From assembly GCA_033220425.1 (NCBI GenBank), contig CM065646.1, positions 627,501-691,500 of the forward strand: a DNA stretch of 64,000 nucleotides, given 5' to 3'. The translations under genes were made by a program, and so were the position numbers. Position 1 is the first letter of the stretch. The number at the start of each line of letters is the position of its first letter. Below are positions 45,788 through 51,503 of the stretch, piece by piece. The stretch comes from Lepraria neglecta (lineage: Eukaryota; Ascomycota; Lecanoromycetes; Lecanorales; Stereocaulaceae). Below the pieces are notes generated by a model that saw only the letters and a program-made list of their open reading frames with translations, was not told the DNA's origin and did not search any database.

Positions 45788-46082
45788 TGCGTTTAGGTTG
45801 CGGAGAGACGGAGCAGGAATGCTGATCAAGAAAGTCCGCCAAAATGAGCACTGTAACACAGTGCTTCTGGACTCTGTAACAGTGCTTCTGGACTCATGTA
45901 TTGATTCTTATGGATCTACAAGATGGAGCGAGGCCCATAAGGGGCACTGCGCTTAGCGTGCCTGCCACCCACCGTGCCTGCCACAATAGTATAGTATTAT
46001 ATTAGAGAGGTTATAGTAATAGGAAGGTTAGGATTAAATATATTAGTACTACATCGCGCTTTCCCAAAAGTTTCTGTCATTA

Positions 46083-46169
46083 CAGTCGATTGCAAAACCA
46101 TTGGCGGGAACGCTAAGGCACTTTCGGGGTACCCCACCACACACCAAATTCTGGTGGCAGAACGGGTAT
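46083..46169. repeat. Left terminal inverted repeat of the 4.0-kb element
   Basis: Begins CAGTCGATTGCAAAACCATT. It matches the reverse complement of 49987-50073 over 87 bp, with mismatches at about positions 69 and 81. Confidence 0.9.
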
Positions 46170-46309
46170 ATAGAAAGTGCTGCGTTGTCTCTGCAGTAGT
46201 GCTCATGTAGTCTTCCTAAAACGGCAAAGATGAAGCCGCCAGTGCCCCATATATGGTGTTTTGTCTCCCCCCGCGCTCGTAGACTGTAGACCTCATTGTC
46301 GCTGTCGCT

Positions 46310-46675
46310 ATGGGCCCCAGAAAGCGTCGTTCCAGTACGTTTGACAGGTATGCTGCCGTCGATAGAGAGCCTGCTGTCGCCCAGACACCTCGCCGTCTGA
46401 CCCTGAAGCCTCCTGCCCCTGCTGCTGCTGCTGCTGCCCCTCAGACACCTGGACGTCTGACCCTCAACCCGCCAGCCCCCCCATCTGGACGGCTGGTGCT
46501 GAAGCCACCCCAGGCGCCTGAGCAGGCTGAGAAGCGTCCACCGCCGCCCAAAAAGGATGGCAAGGCAGCTCCTCAACGAGCTTTGAAGCCAGCTGCTAAG
46601 AAGGCCTCTAAAAAGGCTTCTCAACCAGCAAAGCAGCCCTCCCCAGAGCCCGAGCAAAGCCCCCCTGTAGTATAG
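46310..46675 (+). CDS. Pro/Ala/Lys-rich small ORF inside the 4.0-kb element
   Basis: 121 residues starting MGPRKRRSSTFDRYAAVDRE. Imperfect repeats of TP-RRLTLKPPAP type, a poly-Ala run encoded by GCTGCTGCT repeats, and a Lys/Ala tail occupy the whole length. It is highly basic and disordered. It ends just before the 680-aa frame, and I could not find a frame-compatible GT-AG join between them, so it may be a separate peptide, a 5' exon with an unrecognised join, or untranslated leader. The repeated PPxP and basic composition would suit nucleic-acid binding. Confidence 0.45.
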   Translation: MGPRKRRSSTFDRYAAVDREPAVAQTPRRLTLKPPAPAAAAAAPQTPGRLTLNPPAPPSGRLVLKPPQAPEQAEKRPPPPKKDGKAAPQRALKPAAKKASKKASQPAKQPSPEPEQSPPVV

Positions 46676-46683
46676 ACGGATCT

Positions 46684-48726
46684 TTGCATGCTCCCCGTAC
46701 ATTCCACTCAAGTATGCCACCGCCACCTGTCTCGTCTAGCCTCTTTTCAAGCCAGCAGTCGTCCTCAGCGCTATTCCTCAGGGCAAGAGCTCAGAAGGCA
46801 ATTGATTTGGTGCCAGATACACCGTCTCGAACGTCTATAACCTCATTTCGACATGATCTGCTCGATGAGGATGACGATTCTGATGGAGCTGGGCCCGAGA
46901 CTCAGTTATCCAACACTCAGACGTATTTCGATACCCAGCAGCCCCAAATAAGACGCCATTCGTCTGAAAGCCTGTTCGTAGGCGTCGAAGGTGAATCGAA
47001 TAAGAGGTGGACGCAGGCTAGGAAGGAGATATCTCGTAGGGAGGACGTTTTCGGTGAGAGTGAGGAGACTCCAAAGGATGTCGATAACTCGCAGTCTACG
47101 GCTGGTCAGCAATCCCACGGTTCTACTACAAATCAGAAGAAGGGGAAGGCAAATTCGATACACCTGGATAGTGAGGACGAGCTCGAATCGCCAGGACGTG
47201 TTGCTTTTAAATATAAGCTTGCTGTCAGGTCATTCTGGGAGAAAGACATCCAAAGTTCGATTATTCGCAGCCAGACCTTCCGGGACTATACTGTCGATGG
47301 CAGTAACGACATTCTTATTAGAACTATGCATAATCAGCAGAAGGAATTCGCCGCTAAATGGGCTATAGAGAGAGGCCACGCCTGCTTTCGTGTCTCAGTC
47401 CAAGCAACACCATTTTATGAGAAGCTTACAGGGCCGAATCGACGTTCTACCACCGCCGAGACGCAGCAGGACTGGTATAGTGTTGAAGACGAGCTTCGGG
47501 AGTGGCAGAAGGACGGAAAGAAGGGCCTACAGGTGGACCTTATATACCATTGGGCCCGTAACAGCACGGGGGAGATCCCCGTAGTTGGCAAAGCAGCTGA
47601 GAAGAAGCCTGGGACGATTGTTTCAGGAACAGCAAGAGGCTCTACACATATCCCAACTAATAGGCTTCTTGGGGAGATGGATGAGACGAATGCAGGGGAG
47701 CCTTGGAGGCAAAAACAACAGGAAATACACAATCGATGGGCTTGCAAAAGTTCTATATGCAGCAATACGGGCCACTATTGCTATTTGCATAAGGGCGAGC
47801 ATATACCCTTCCTTCCAAGGCAGTCGAAGATGTGGGCAGTTGCTATCCTAAGAGATACTACAGGTCGAATAAGTGACGACGAGCCTCCTGCGTCTTTACT
47901 TGTTGAACTACAGCAGACGCAGAAGAAGGAGGCTCGTAAAGAAAAGAGACGACATACCACTGAGACACCAACACAGCCTACAACTACACCTGCTTATCCT
48001 ACTATAGGAGGGCAGTTTGGACAGCCACCGCCTTTGTATCCCTACGGATATAGCTTCCAGCCTGGCTTTCAGCCACTGATATCAGGGCCCCAGTCGCTGA
48101 GAGACACGAGAACGTCAGATCTGATAAAAGAGCTTCGCTCTAGAGACGTGGATCCAACTGAGACAACTACTCGACCCCCTCACTCGATCTCTCGCTCAGT
48201 CACAGCAACACCAGGCCTCTCGTCCTATCGAAATAGCAGCCCTGTCGAAGGCGAACTAGCCGAGTTCGTTGGATGGTTAAGCAAAAAGCACCCTGAATAC
48301 ATAAAAGCATATGAGGAGGCTAAGGACGAGCTTATGGATCAGGGCTATACTACAGATATCATACAAGCCTGGAAGAATGACGAGCATGAGGAGCAGTGGC
48401 GTAAGCTTGGTATTAAGCCTGGGATTGGCCGCCAATTGGCTAGAAACGTCAGTAAATGGGGCCGTGAGAGGCAGGTTCAAACGACTCTTCATGTTGGAGG
48501 TCTAGGAAGAACTCTCCCATTATCGCCATCGCGGCAGCGTTTAGCAAGCAGGCCTCAGCAGACGTCCTATAAGCAGGGACATATAATTCCGTCTGTTGAG
48601 ACGAAAGCTTATGAAGATGAGACCCAGGATGATGACCCGGATATATACGATCTATACGGTGGAGCGAATCTTAGTGATTCAGACTGTTTTGCAGAGACTC
48701 AGCTGGAGACTCAAGCAAAGACCTAA
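46684..48726 (+). CDS. Unknown 680-aa protein, second gene of the 4.0-kb element
   Basis: An uninterrupted frame starting MHAPRTFHSSMPPPPVSSSL (a second ATG at 46714 is equally likely). Residues 1-170 are Ser/Asp/Glu-rich and disordered. Residues about 175-330 look globular (VAFKYKLAVRSFWEKDIQSS; FAAKWAIERGHACFRVSVQA). A compact Cys/His motif CKSSICSNTGHYCYLH at about 353-368 (C-x4-C-x6-C-x2-H) could bind zinc. A Pro/Tyr-rich linker follows, then a helical block near residues 520-590 (GWLSKKHPEYIKAYEEAKDE; IKPGIGRQLARNVSKWGRER). I recognise no named family. Its position inside the terminal repeats makes it part of the element: an accessory transposition protein or cargo. Confidence 0.75.
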   Translation: MHAPRTFHSSMPPPPVSSSLFSSQQSSSALFLRARAQKAIDLVPDTPSRTSITSFRHDLLDEDDDSDGAGPETQLSNTQTYFDTQQPQIRRHSSESLFVGVEGESNKRWTQARKEISRREDVFGESEETPKDVDNSQSTAGQQSHGSTTNQKKGKANSIHLDSEDELESPGRVAFKYKLAVRSFWEKDIQSSIIRSQTFRDYTVDGSNDILIRTMHNQQKEFAAKWAIERGHACFRVSVQATPFYEKLTGPNRRSTTAETQQDWYSVEDELREWQKDGKKGLQVDLIYHWARNSTGEIPVVGKAAEKKPGTIVSGTARGSTHIPTNRLLGEMDETNAGEPWRQKQQEIHNRWACKSSICSNTGHYCYLHKGEHIPFLPRQSKMWAVAILRDTTGRISDDEPPASLLVELQQTQKKEARKEKRRHTTETPTQPTTTPAYPTIGGQFGQPPPLYPYGYSFQPGFQPLISGPQSLRDTRTSDLIKELRSRDVDPTETTTRPPHSISRSVTATPGLSSYRNSSPVEGELAEFVGWLSKKHPEYIKAYEEAKDELMDQGYTTDIIQAWKNDEHEEQWRKLGIKPGIGRQLARNVSKWGRERQVQTTLHVGGLGRTLPLSPSRQRLASRPQQTSYKQGHIIPSVETKAYEDETQDDDPDIYDLYGGANLSDSDCFAETQLETQAKT

Positions 48727-48775
48727 ATCTATATATAACCTAGATTGCAAGCTTTCCCTCTTATTATATACACAA

Positions 48776-49860
48776 TTATATGTCTCCTTCTTCCTCGTCT
48801 GACTCCTCTACTTGTCTGACTGCATTATTGATGCCCTCATATTCGATCCCTGCTAAGCGGAAGAGATTGCCTGCATCGGGCCATGGATCTTGAGCCTCTA
48901 CCGCTAAGTTTAGAAATTCTCCATATGTATTATCTGTTGCAAAGAGCTCTCCAATGTCCTGATGTCTCTTCATCCAAGCCTTCAACACAGCGAAAGATGT
49001 CTCAATAGGGTTCAAATCTGGCGAATATGGAGGGAGATATTCGAGCCGAACGCCTGCTTCCTGGCACATCTCTGTCAACTCAGAGTTCCAGTGTATCTTG
49101 CAATTATCCATTATAAGTACAGACATAGGACCGCCGCTTTCGTATGGAGTGCAATGAGGGAGGATTCGATCTCGGACGAATTCGTTGAACATCGCGGCGG
49201 TAATGGGCCCCTGGTATATTATCCAATCGATATAACCGTCGATTGTAAAGGCAGGTAATAGACTCCATCTCTTATTCCTCTTGAGGTTCTGTATAACTGC
49301 CGGTGTTCTTCCTAGAGGTCCCCATCCAAATTTTCGATCCCCTGAGTACTGTTAGCAAGCACCAGCCAATCAGAAGAGATCTCACCTGTACGCTCACAAG
49401 CAGCGCTCTCGTCCAGAAATATAAGCTGGTCAGCTCGCCAATCAGAGAGCTTGGTGAACCAGTAGTCTCGGAGCTCTTGGTTGCGTTCCTTAGCAACCTT
49501 GCGGCACTTCTTTCGAGACCAACCAATGCGTGTAAGAGCTCTCCAGATTGTAGCCTCATCAACCTGGACATCAAATTCATCCAGGAGGAAGAACGCCATC
49601 TCATCCAGATAAGCCATAGGACGTTGCTCCAAATACGCCAAAAGCTCTTCCTCGTACACTTGGTGCAGAGCCCTTGGCCTCCCACCGCGGTTCTCACTGG
49701 GTATATACACCTCTCCATATATCCTCCAGCTTCTCCTCATACGCTGTAGTGTCCGCAGGCTAACATCATATCCACCAAGCAGAATGGTGTCGTTATCGAA
49801 ACCGAGCTCAAGCTCTCGCTGAATAGCAGCCCTGGTGTATGGGTCTATAGGTAGGACCAT
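48776..49860 (-). CDS. Tc1/mariner-type DD34E transposase, apparently intact
   Basis: Two exons (49860-49386 and 49341-48776) joined over a 44-nt intron give 346 residues. It starts MVLPIDPYTRAAIQRELELG. The N-terminal HTH domain includes LGGYDVSLRTLQRMRRSW. The DDE_3-type catalytic domain has LIFLDESAACERTGDRKFGW (first Asp), SVLIMDNCKIHWNSEL (second Asp) and LPPYSPDLNPIETSFAVLKA (Glu), with 34 residues between the second Asp and Glu. Also typical are TPAVIQNLKRNKRWSLLPA and DGYIDWIIYQG. The enzyme would cut and paste the element at TA. No internal stop or frameshift was found. Confidence 0.88.
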
Positions 49861-49986
49861 AGTGGACAGCGAGGGAGGTGGTTGTGGGCAAGCAAAACAC
49901 CAAGGAATGACGTCTACAGGGCCTCACTATTGCCTTTTTGAGAAATGTTCAATTGCATCTACGGTCTACAGTACAGTCCTCCCTAG

Positions 49987-50073
49987 ATACCCCTTCTGCC
50001 ACCAAAATTTGGTGTGTGGTGGGGTACCCCGAAAGTGCCTTAGCGTTCCCGCCAATGGTTTTGCAATCGACTG
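49987..50073. repeat. Right terminal inverted repeat of the 4.0-kb element
   Basis: Reverse complement of the left repeat with two differences. It is followed by the TA target duplication at 50074-50075. Confidence 0.9.
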
Positions 50074-50179
50074 TAGCGTCACAGCTAGTTCGGCGCGATC
50101 AGCAGGCCGCAGCCAAATCAGGGTCTGTCAATTGCGGGCCGAGAAATCAGCAGGATCAGCAACTAGAACTACAGTTCTA

Positions 50180-51503
50180 GGACAAAAGTTTCCGCGGTTC
50201 GCCCCACCAACTTTTTTACCCCCCAGTTCAACTTATTACTGCACTACTAACTCAAGCGGAGATAGCTTGTAACTTTGCATAGTAATTATATAGTATATAT
50301 ACAAGGTTTCTCCGGTCGCATTAGTAATCTAGTATCTAGTATACCAGCCCTCAGCTGCAATACATGCTGCAACCCTCCGGGGTATACTATTTACTAATTT
50401 CTCTAATAGGTCCTCCTCAACTAGGTGCCAGGCCCTTTCCAAGGCGTCCTATAGGGCGTCTTGAACGCTATCAGTATCCCCACCAACTTGCTCGATATCG
50501 GGGCGCACCTCGTAGACCAGTTGCTTCAGGCGGAACCAGAGGTGTTCAATAGGGTTTTGATCCGGGCTGTACGGAGGCCATTCCAGCACATCAACCCCCA
50601 TATCTTTAAACCACCGGCGTACCACGTGTGCTGTATATATAGGGGCGTTATCCTGCATAAATAGCAGCCCGGGTTCCCAGATCTGGGGTATATTTTCTTC
50701 TAAAACCTCAATATAGGACGCCGCCGAATAGCCTTGCCTCTGGGAGGTCATATCGCGTACCATTCCGTGTAGATTACTCCTATTACGGCCCCAGAAAGCT
50801 GCCCAGACCATAACACTAACGCCCTTACCCTTTTTATAGGGGTTAATCATCTCCTTATTCTATTTTTCGTGGGGGAAGCGAAATACCCATACGGGTGACT
50901 TTCCGGTTCCACGCTCCGCTGAACACTCATCTGACCAGATAACTTTACGCCACTGTTCCAGCGTCCAGCGCTCCCTCTCTAGGCACCAGACAAGCCGTTT
51001 AGCAGCTACCTCCGGGGTAAGTAATGGGCGCTTCTTAGCACGCCAATTGGTAAGTCTATAGGCCTCGAGCTCGCGATATAGGGTTTTTTGGCAGCAGGTG
51101 AGCCCCGCCTGTAATTTTAGGGCTCTGTAGGTAGTCTTCGGTTCCCGGCGTACAATTCGTATCAGCTTGCGTCTATCGCGTTCAGATAATACTTTAGGGC
51201 GGCCCTCGCGGGGTATTAACTGCCCTTGGTAGCGCTGGAGGTCGAGGTCTCGGGTATATCTCACAGTTGATTCGGGTGTCTTAAAGTGCTTTTGTATATA
51301 CCAGGGTGATACTCCGGTACCGAGCTGCCCTATAATAATTCCTCTCTGGTACGGTGTTAGGTCAGGGCCCTTAGGCCGATTGCTACTTATAGGCCCCAGT
51401 GGTCTGCGAGGCATTGTTTTATAGGGGTTGAAAGTTGAAGAGTTGAGGCCTGCGCGTCGCGAAAAACGCGATTTTTCGCGAAACCGCAGAAACTTTTTGT
51501 CCG
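50180..51503 (-). mobile_element. 1.3-kb Tc1/mariner-like element, lightly decayed
   Basis: Flanked by TA (50178-50179 and 51504-51505). The terminal inverted repeats read GGACAAAAGTTTCCGCGGTT on the left and, reversed, CCGGACAAAAAGTTTCTGCG on the right, so they are diverged. Inside is one transposase gene on the minus strand. Just within the right end a hairpin-forming TCGCGAAAAA/TTTTTCGCGA repeat is present (about 51456-51480). Only 104 bp separate it from the 4.0-kb element. Confidence 0.8.
50449..51414 (-). pseudogene. Tc1-type DD34E transposase with one in-frame stop
   Basis: About 321 residues starting MPRRPLGPISSNRPKGPDLT. HTH region LTPYQRGIIIGQLGTGVSPW, then TTYRALKLQAG, the first catalytic Asp in VIWSDECSAERG, the second in LLFMQDNAPIYTAHVVRRWF, and Glu in WPPYSPDQNPIEHLWFRLKQ. 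The DD34E spacing is preserved. A single TAG at about 50860-50862 interrupts HEK*NKEMINPYKKG, where CAG (Gln) is the likely ancestor. The rest of the frame is open, so the copy died recently or would need only read-through; nothing else is visibly missing. Confidence 0.8.

What the first reader, a model, noticed from the sequence alone, without database searches (positions are those of the whole stretch)
46083..50073. Mariner-like transposon carrying an intact second gene of unknown function
Seen: TA duplications, 87-bp terminal inverted repeats with two mismatches, an intact two-exon DD34E transposase on one strand, and an uninterrupted 680-codon frame on the other strand, convergent, both inside the repeats. 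Established: Tc1/mariner elements normally encode only a transposase and are 1.3-2.4 kb. Inference: this is an enlarged lineage with a conserved accessory protein, or a cargo capture, and it moved recently.
Basis: partly seen in the sequence, partly recalled or inferred. Interest (0 to 1): 0.82.

Follow-up and report, generated by a model that had tools for sequence, protein, structure and literature searches.

The report
Two-gene Tc1/mariner transposons in lichen fungus
A jumping gene in the lichen fungus Lepraria neglecta carries, besides its usual transposase, a second conserved gene of unknown function, and three distantly related families in the same genome share this two-gene layout, so the second gene looks like a long-standing part of the element and not a recent passenger.

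Summary
In detail: TA duplications, 87-bp terminal repeats with two mismatches, a two-exon DD34E transposase and a convergent second frame. One correction: the second gene is 805 codons, uninterrupted in two sister copies. The window copy has one C fewer in a C-run, leaving 670 codons after ATG (true mutation or assembly error, undecided).

The element belongs to a recently amplified family (A): six copies identical but for that C, each at its own TA. Decisive: two further families, B (11 copies with identical, stop-free second genes) and C (one intact), with transposases 47% and about 36% identical to A's, have the same layout and homologous second proteins. 35 of 49 second-gene loci have a convergent transposase within 1.5 kb, including all 18 matched full length without stops. 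Foreign homologues exist. Older copies are decayed by RIP-like changes; the other changes suggest weak purifying selection.

So this is most simply an old two-gene IS630-Tc1-mariner lineage, not cargo capture. The second protein (zinc-like CCCH motif, helical C-terminal domain) matches no Pfam family above its cut-off. I infer a DNA-bound, self-associating transposition cofactor; no call tests its function. Multi-gene relatives are known in ciliates.

The parts
46081..46082 (.). TA target-site duplication, left
50074..50075 (.). TA target-site duplication, right
46083..50073 (.). complete 3,991-bp element, family A
   Evidence: (this copy is G000:C1:673583-677573; 96 matching pieces in the genome)
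46083..46169 (.). left terminal inverted repeat, 87 bp (similarity continues to about 100 bp)
49987..50073 (.). right terminal inverted repeat, 87 bp
46138..46153 (+). 16-nt subterminal motif shared with family B ends (15 of 16 matches) at nearly the same distance from the end (56 against 57 bp into the element); candidate protein-binding site (inference)
   Evidence: 0 of 200 shuffles reach the score
46310..48726 (+). ORF2 gene (805 codons in copies L005/L006); in the window copy split by a 1-nt difference in the C-run that starts at 46660
47206..47556 (+). ORF2 alpha/beta region (P0003 residues 300-416; low confidence in the A model); in the C-type relative it models as a beta-grasp/PB1-like domain (weak match)
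47743..47802 (+). ORF2 zinc-like motif C-x4-C-x6-C-x6-H (P0003 C479, C484, C491, H498; C479 and C484 invariant in the 13 aligned homologues, H498 nearly so)
48253..48486 (+). ORF2 C-terminal five-helix domain (P0003 residues 649-726, pLDDT about 89), possibly SAM-like
49386..49860 (-). transposase exon 1 (helix-turn-helix region, first catalytic D)
49342..49385 (-). transposase intron, 44 bp, GT...AG (predicted)
48776..49341 (-). transposase exon 2 (DDE_3, D-34-E)

Best explanation
Shown: the element is a recently active member of a lineage of two-gene IS630-Tc1-mariner transposons in a lichen fungus. The elements read have TA-flanked terminal repeats of about 90-134 bp, a DD34E transposase gene, and, convergent with it and usually ending about 50-150 bp away, a conserved gene (ORF2, about 650-805 codons). 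Most simply, the pairing is older than the split between families A, B and C. Inferred (about 50%): ORF2 protein is a non-catalytic transposition cofactor made by the element. Its basic or long-helical N-terminus and zinc-like module hold DNA or chromatin, perhaps the long ends, and its beta-grasp-like and C-terminal helical domains self-associate and bring ends and transposase together. The DD34E transposase does the cutting and joining at TA. Promoters near the two ends would express the convergent genes separately.
For: Copies: six that differ only by one C, each at its own TA site. Empty site: the joined flanks match 38 other dispersed repeats whose matches all span the insertion point; one (C1:5948870-5948979) has no net indel, the other 37 differ by a net 8-10 nt at a place I could not read. 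Family B: 91-bp ends at 100%, transposase 47% identical to A's (E 4e-105), convergent ORF2; ORF2 matches at 100% without stops in 11 loci; the two elements read whole, L059 and L060, are identical over 4,051 bp. Family C: 134-bp ends at 97.8%, intact 340-aa transposase, convergent 677-aa ORF2. ORF2 homology by profile comparison: A-B probability 97.3, E 1.7e-11; B-C 96.0, E 4.9e-9; A-C 74.4, E 2.7e-5. Pairing: 35 of 49 ORF2 loci have a convergent transposase within 1.5 kb, including all 18 matched full length without stops; none of the 14 unpaired loci has a transposase in any orientation within 4.2 kb. Foreign homologues: P0002 (88%), P0005 (72%), P0006 (38%), P0007-P0014 (48-60%). A and B ends share a 16-nt motif at the same depth. 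With RIP-type changes set aside, 8 of 8 comparisons of ORF2 with older copies for which z was computed show fewer amino-acid changes than expected (z from -0.48 to -3.00).
Confidence: 0.75

Rival explanations
1. ORF2 is an anti-silencing protein: it protects new copies from RIP, methylation or heterochromatin and plays no part in cutting or joining.
For: The host or its ancestors mutate these elements in RIP fashion: in L008, 148 of 201 differences are C>T before A or G>A after T. The six youngest A copies carry none. Transposon-borne TET/JBP dioxygenase genes exist in several fungal DNA transposon lineages (PMC12730594; title, start of abstract and one passage seen).
Against: Older copies with ORF2 were mutated anyway. 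No enzyme domain is recognised. Unmutated young copies are explained equally well by youth or by loss of sex.
Confidence: 0.22
2. ORF2 is a self-encoded regulator, for example a repressor that binds the ends and limits copy number.
For: Basic N-terminus and zinc-like motif; a shared subterminal motif in A and B ends; four copies with a broken ORF2 are as young as the two with a whole one.
Against: Retention in three old families, one at 11 recent copies, is less expected of a repressor.
Confidence: 0.13
3. Recent capture of a host gene as cargo.
For: The element is 3,991 bp against the usual 1.3-2.4 kb with a single ORF (PMC4188875, passage seen).
Against: The same pair recurs in families A, B and C with deeply diverged proteins; foreign homologues, seven of them on contigs close to element size. 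The one candidate for a stand-alone gene is C6:346970-348616, a 33% relative of the C-type.
Confidence: 0.02
4. Two nested or fused elements that happen to move together.
For: Family A is itself a mosaic: synonymous divergence between L005 and L009 is 0.13 in ORF2 but 0.58 in the transposase, so halves have been exchanged.
Against: No second set of ends between the genes; similar convergent spacing in most pairs, 51-146 bp in 33 of 35.
Confidence: 0.02

Closest known systems
IS630-Tc1-mariner superfamily (Tc1/mariner), DD34E members
   Same: TA duplications, terminal inverted repeats, DDE_3 transposase with D-34-E, IS630 model match.
   Different: Typical elements are 1.3-2.4 kb with one ORF (PMC4188875, passage); these are about 3.6-4.05 kb with a second, convergent gene.
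Ciliate Tec and TBE elements (Tc1/mariner relatives with extra genes)
   Same: DD34E transposase plus further ORFs; TBE has about 80-bp ends and a zinc finger protein, Tec has one ORF in complement (PMC7325037, passages).
   Different: They have three ORFs; a Tec ORF encodes a site-specific recombinase. Homology to ORF2 was not tested; host kingdom differs.
Tc1-OP1 of the yeast Ogataea parapolymorpha
   Same: Oversized fungal Tc1 element (5,659 bp, 169-bp ends) with about 680 aa of unidentified serine/proline-rich 'domainX' beside the transposase (PMC9977792, section 8 read, other passages).
   Different: domainX is fused to the transposase in one ORF and the triad is DD40E. Whether domainX is related to ORF2 was not tested (sequence not held).
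Two-gene cut-and-paste superfamilies such as PIF/Harbinger (transposase plus DNA-binding protein)
   Same: Division of labour between a transposase and a second DNA-binding protein (PMC3562529, passage) is the model proposed here.
   Different: Different transposase family; different target site and Myb-like second protein in Harbinger (both recalled); ORF2 has no Pfam match above a cut-off.

Membership tests
IS630-Tc1-mariner superfamily | DDE/D transposase of the DDE_3/IS630 type | tested here: met
   A: DDE_3 2e-17 for exon 2, IS630 140.6 bits over cut-off 100. B: DDE_3 5.7e-29; C: DDE_3 1.3e-29; C: IS630 129.7 bits.
IS630-Tc1-mariner superfamily | catalytic spacing D-34-E (Tc1-like) | tested here: met
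   34 residues between D237 and E272 in A; B and C counted by eye on the translations.
IS630-Tc1-mariner superfamily | insertion at TA with TA duplication | tested here: met
   Window copy and 5 of 5 other young A copies; paralogous sites spanning the insertion point; C; both B elements read whole, L059 and L060.
IS630-Tc1-mariner superfamily | terminal inverted repeats | tested here: met
   87 bp with 2 mismatches in A, 90-91 bp in B, 134 bp in C.
IS630-Tc1-mariner superfamily | usual size 1.3-2.4 kb with a single ORF (typical, not defining) | tested here: not met
   3,991 bp and two genes.
Tec/TBE ciliate elements | three ORFs, Tec with a site-specific recombinase | tested here: not met
   Two genes; no recombinase match in Pfam scans. 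Homology of ORF2 to their extra proteins: not tested.
Tc1-OP1-like elements | domainX fused to the transposase in one ORF | tested here: not met
   Separate convergent genes. Sequence homology to domainX: not tested.
PIF/Harbinger two-gene transposons | Harbinger-type transposase and a Myb-like second protein (Myb recalled) | tested here: not met
   Transposase matches DDE_3/IS630; no Myb match for ORF2.
SAM-domain proteins (ORF2 C-terminus) | SAM fold | tested here: inconclusive
PB1/beta-grasp proteins (ORF2 middle domain) | PB1 fold | tested here: inconclusive

The most novel reading that the evidence does not exclude
Fungi harbour an ancient clade of genuinely two-component Tc1/mariner transposons in which a dedicated, element-encoded zinc-motif scaffold protein of a new family is needed for, or greatly helps, transposition or evasion of silencing. 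This would be a counterpart outside ciliates to multi-gene Tc1/mariner elements, and it has stayed hidden because ORF2 is annotated as a host 'hypothetical protein' (e.g. OEA41_008219).
Probability: 0.45. Interest if true: 0.75.

Novelty: new variant of a known kind. Interest (0 to 1): 0.6.

Why it matters
Tc1/mariner elements are the textbook one-gene transposons. A lineage that has kept a second gene through deep divergence makes it testable what a Tc1/mariner element gains from a helper (end binding, targeting, anti-silencing or control). It also supplies recent copies to test: 2 of family A with a whole ORF2 (6 if the C-run difference is an assembly error), 11 of B with stop-free ORF2, and 1 of C. 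Practically, these ORF2 genes are annotated as host hypothetical proteins (P0001, P0004), so they can inflate gene counts in fungal genomes.

Tried and rejected
Rejected: an intron joining the 121-aa and 670-aa ORFs. Two copies and the foreign P0002 read straight through. Not excluded but unsupported: ribosomal or transcriptional slippage on the C-run of the window copy.

Rejected: recent cargo capture and unique host gene.

Led nowhere: viral contig scans with ORF2 of A, B and C (0 relatives). PDB sequence searches with ORF2: no match for A alone, chance-level hits for the profiles; the A transposase found only weak rows (TnsB fusion E 0.014, Sleeping Beauty E 0.63). Foldseek: no hit at E <= 0.001 for either model; superantigen and kinesin rows are read as chance fold resemblance. 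Pfam and NCBIfam for ORF2: only rows below their cut-offs (PLA1 E 0.11; CBM_5_12 E 0.076 for P0006; TrlF E 0.028 for P0008). The bacterial promoter and terminator scan was at chance level and does not suit a fungus. Literature searches for a two-gene fungal Tc1/mariner gave only Tc1-OP1 and the ciliate elements as multi-protein precedents among the listings and passages I saw. Passages of PMC3441728, PMC4112212, PMC5872316 and PMC9594970 had nothing on it. The library is open-access only; Repbase was not available and may hold such elements.

Dropped rows were cross-hits between families, other pieces of the same place, or short or weak fragments (among them C2:2512544, C3:2104295, C5:241176 and C1:3404053); they were not counted as misses. 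The searches behind them score only their best candidates, so counts are lower bounds.

The first selection estimates (ratios 0.5-2.3) mixed in RIP-type changes and are not used as evidence; results with those set aside are. L007 and L008 (8 and 12 such ORF2 changes) were too few for a z.

Full report
WHAT IS THERE. The window lies in a 42.0-Mb, 11-contig genome. Database names of proteins identical to its ORF2 genes give Lepraria neglecta, a lichen-forming ascomycete. The element spans 46083-50073 between TA dinucleotides. Its ends match over 87 bp with mismatches at positions 69 and 81. On the minus strand a 346-aa transposase is encoded by two exons with a predicted 44-bp GT-AG intron and a D-34-E triad; it matches DDE_3 and the IS630 model above its cut-off. 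On the plus strand a 704-codon open frame (670 from ATG) ends 49 bp from the transposase stop codon, convergent.

CORRECTION TO THE SECOND GENE. Copies L005 and L006 differ from the window copy by one extra C in a run of C; there the upstream 121-aa ORF and the 670-aa ORF are one ORF of 805 aa. The outgroup copies L009 and L010, read by eye in the alignment, keep the same frame across this point, and the foreign homologue P0002 (795 aa) reads through it. The window copy (fetched again as L004), L001-L003, L007 and L008 have the shorter run. Whether this is a real frameshift that spread with the element or a homopolymer error in the assembly cannot be decided without reads.

RECENT MOVEMENT. 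Six copies (the window copy, L001, L002, L003, L005, L006) are identical over 3,991 bp except for that C; each sits at TA in its own flanking sequence. Older copies are 98, 95, 89 and 85% identical (L007-L010), and there are many fragments. The joined flanks of the window copy match 40 places: two are the flanks themselves, and the other 38 are dispersed repeats whose matches all span the junction, i.e. related sites without the element. One, C1:5948870-5948979, aligns without net insertion or deletion; the other 37 differ by a net 8-10 nt whose position I could not read.

THE SAME LAYOUT IN TWO MORE FAMILIES. Searching the genome with ORF2 also found weakly similar loci (34% over about 95 residues) with open frames of about 650 aa. 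These are family B: 91-bp ends at 100%, a 328-aa transposase with a predicted 61-bp intron that is 47% identical to A's (E 4e-105), and a convergent ORF2. ORF2 of B matches P0004 at 100% without stops in 11 loci. Two of the 11 elements were read whole (L059, L060) and are identical over 4,051 bp; a third, L058, read in part, has a 2-nt length difference upstream of P0004's start. A more distant transposase (36% identical) led to family C: 134-bp ends at 97.8%, an intact 340-aa transposase and a convergent 677-aa ORF2. Profile comparisons link the three second proteins: A-B 97.3% (E 1.7e-11), B-C 96.0% (E 4.9e-9), A-C 74.4% (E 2.7e-5, over the zinc-like motif).

PAIRING COUNT. From hand-picked rows (see Tried and rejected) I merged 49 ORF2 loci and 62 transposase loci. 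35 of 49 ORF2 loci (A 12 of 17, B 18 of 25, C 5 of 7) have a convergent transposase within 1.5 kb, 33 of the 35 at 51-146 bp. None of the 14 unpaired loci has a transposase of any orientation within 4.2 kb. All 18 loci matched full length without stops (6 A, over the 670-aa frame; 11 B; 1 C) are paired. The unpaired loci are mostly broken pieces. The notable exception is C6:346970-348616, a C-type relative (33%) with a long frame, one stop and no transposase found within 179 kb; its surroundings could not be fetched. 27 of 62 transposase loci have no ORF2 detected: fragments, more distant families, and a C-type copy (C4:2915967) whose ORF2 was not found.

HOMOLOGUES ELSEWHERE. Three database searches, which collect only relatives sharing short exact words, gave beyond the host's own proteins one A-type (P0002, 88% identical), two B-type (P0005 72%, P0006 38%) and eight C-type proteins (P0007-P0014, 48-60%). 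Six of the eight C-type contigs are 3.1-3.6 kb long and P0006's is 4.0 kb, close to the element lengths, as expected if repeats collapse in assemblies (inference). No source names were given and no DNA was available, so adjacency to a transposase in these genomes is untested.

SELECTION. Old copies are decayed in RIP fashion: in L008, 148 of 201 differences are C>T before A or G>A after T. With RIP-type changes set aside, ORF2 shows fewer amino-acid changes than expected in 8 of 8 comparisons of L005 with older copies (L009 z -2.66, L010 -1.20, the C7:4.69-4.71 Mb copy -0.48, L014 -3.00, L017 -2.87, L011 -1.73, L012 -2.43, L013 -1.79). These share ancestry and are not independent, and four are short of z = -2; L007 and L008 had too few such changes for a z. 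The transposase is more constrained (z -6.17, -5.67, -4.56, and -1.68 on 98 codons). Stronger evidence of constraint is that long open frames with the same conserved positions persist between families: across 13 aligned proteins C479, C484, G488, G496 and W509 are invariant and H498 nearly so.

MOSAIC ORIGIN. Between L005 and L009 synonymous divergence is 0.13 in ORF2 and 0.58 in the transposase, whereas L009 and L010 differ about evenly along the element. So the two halves of family A appear to have different histories, joined by recombination near the gap between the genes.

MECHANISM, committed. Shown: two genes, shared ends, joint amplification, recurrent pairing in one genome. Inferred: the transposase cuts and joins at TA; ORF2 protein is a non-catalytic cofactor that binds DNA or chromatin and self-associates, helping end pairing or access (about 50%). 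Anti-silencing (about 22%) and self-regulation (about 13%) remain open. The frameshifted young copies, if real, imply that ORF2 is either dispensable or can act in trans.

AGAINST WHAT IS KNOWN. Tc1/mariner elements are described as 1.3-2.4 kb with one ORF (PMC4188875, passage). Multi-gene relatives are known in ciliates (Tec, TBE; PMC7325037, passages), and a yeast Tc1 carries an unidentified ~680-aa domainX fused to its transposase (PMC9977792, section 8 and passages). My open-access searches showed no report of a convergent two-gene Tc1/mariner lineage in fungi; Repbase and subscription journals were not searched. Hence: new variant of a known kind.

Noticed in passing
window 46660-46665 and loci L001-L010: The C-run that breaks ORF2 is six C in the window copy, L001-L003, L007 and L008 but seven in L005/L006; an assembly error, a real frameshift or slippage could explain it. 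Family B shows a similar 2-nt length difference near its ORF2 start in L058.
   Followed up: partly
L007-L010 against L001-L006; 11 B loci: Old A copies are RIP-like mutated, the six young A copies are not, and ORF2 of 11 B loci is uniform. Lepraria is recalled as a sterile genus; RIP acts in the sexual cycle (recalled), so the contrast could date a loss of sex or of RIP before the recent bursts (inference).
   Followed up: partly
L005 against L009/L010: Mosaic element: ORF2 half with synonymous divergence 0.13, transposase half 0.58, i.e. exchange of the transposase half between sublineages.
   Followed up: partly
L023, L024, L025, L026 (G000 C5:184k, C1:3342k, C6:546k, C6:1490k): Four dispersed, mutually alike repeats (80-94% identical) carry the same transposase piece with the same internal deletion (HTH part joined to a C-terminal part, catalytic middle missing). 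Possibly another element that captured a DNA-binding fragment.
   Followed up: partly
G000 C6:346970-348616: C-type ORF2 relative (33%) with a 589-aa open frame, one stop and no transposase detected nearby: candidate stand-alone copy.
   Followed up: no
window 50449-51414, minus strand: Remains of a different Tc1/mariner-type transposase lie about 375 bp from the element, and the element sits inside a ~125-bp dispersed repeat present in at least 38 other places.
   Followed up: partly
G000 C4:3906263-3906348: An 86-bp stretch resembling an element end in both orientations directly abuts the L002 copy: a tiny non-autonomous derivative or nested ends.
   Followed up: no
L054 (G000 C2:2511044-2514448): Decayed remnant with weak similarity to B ORF2 (24%) and an upstream ORF whose proline/lysine-rich start resembles that of A: perhaps a fourth family.
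   Followed up: no
P0001, P0004: Transposon ORF2 genes are annotated as host hypothetical proteins (OEA41_008219, OEA41_007204, OEA41_004226).
   Followed up: no
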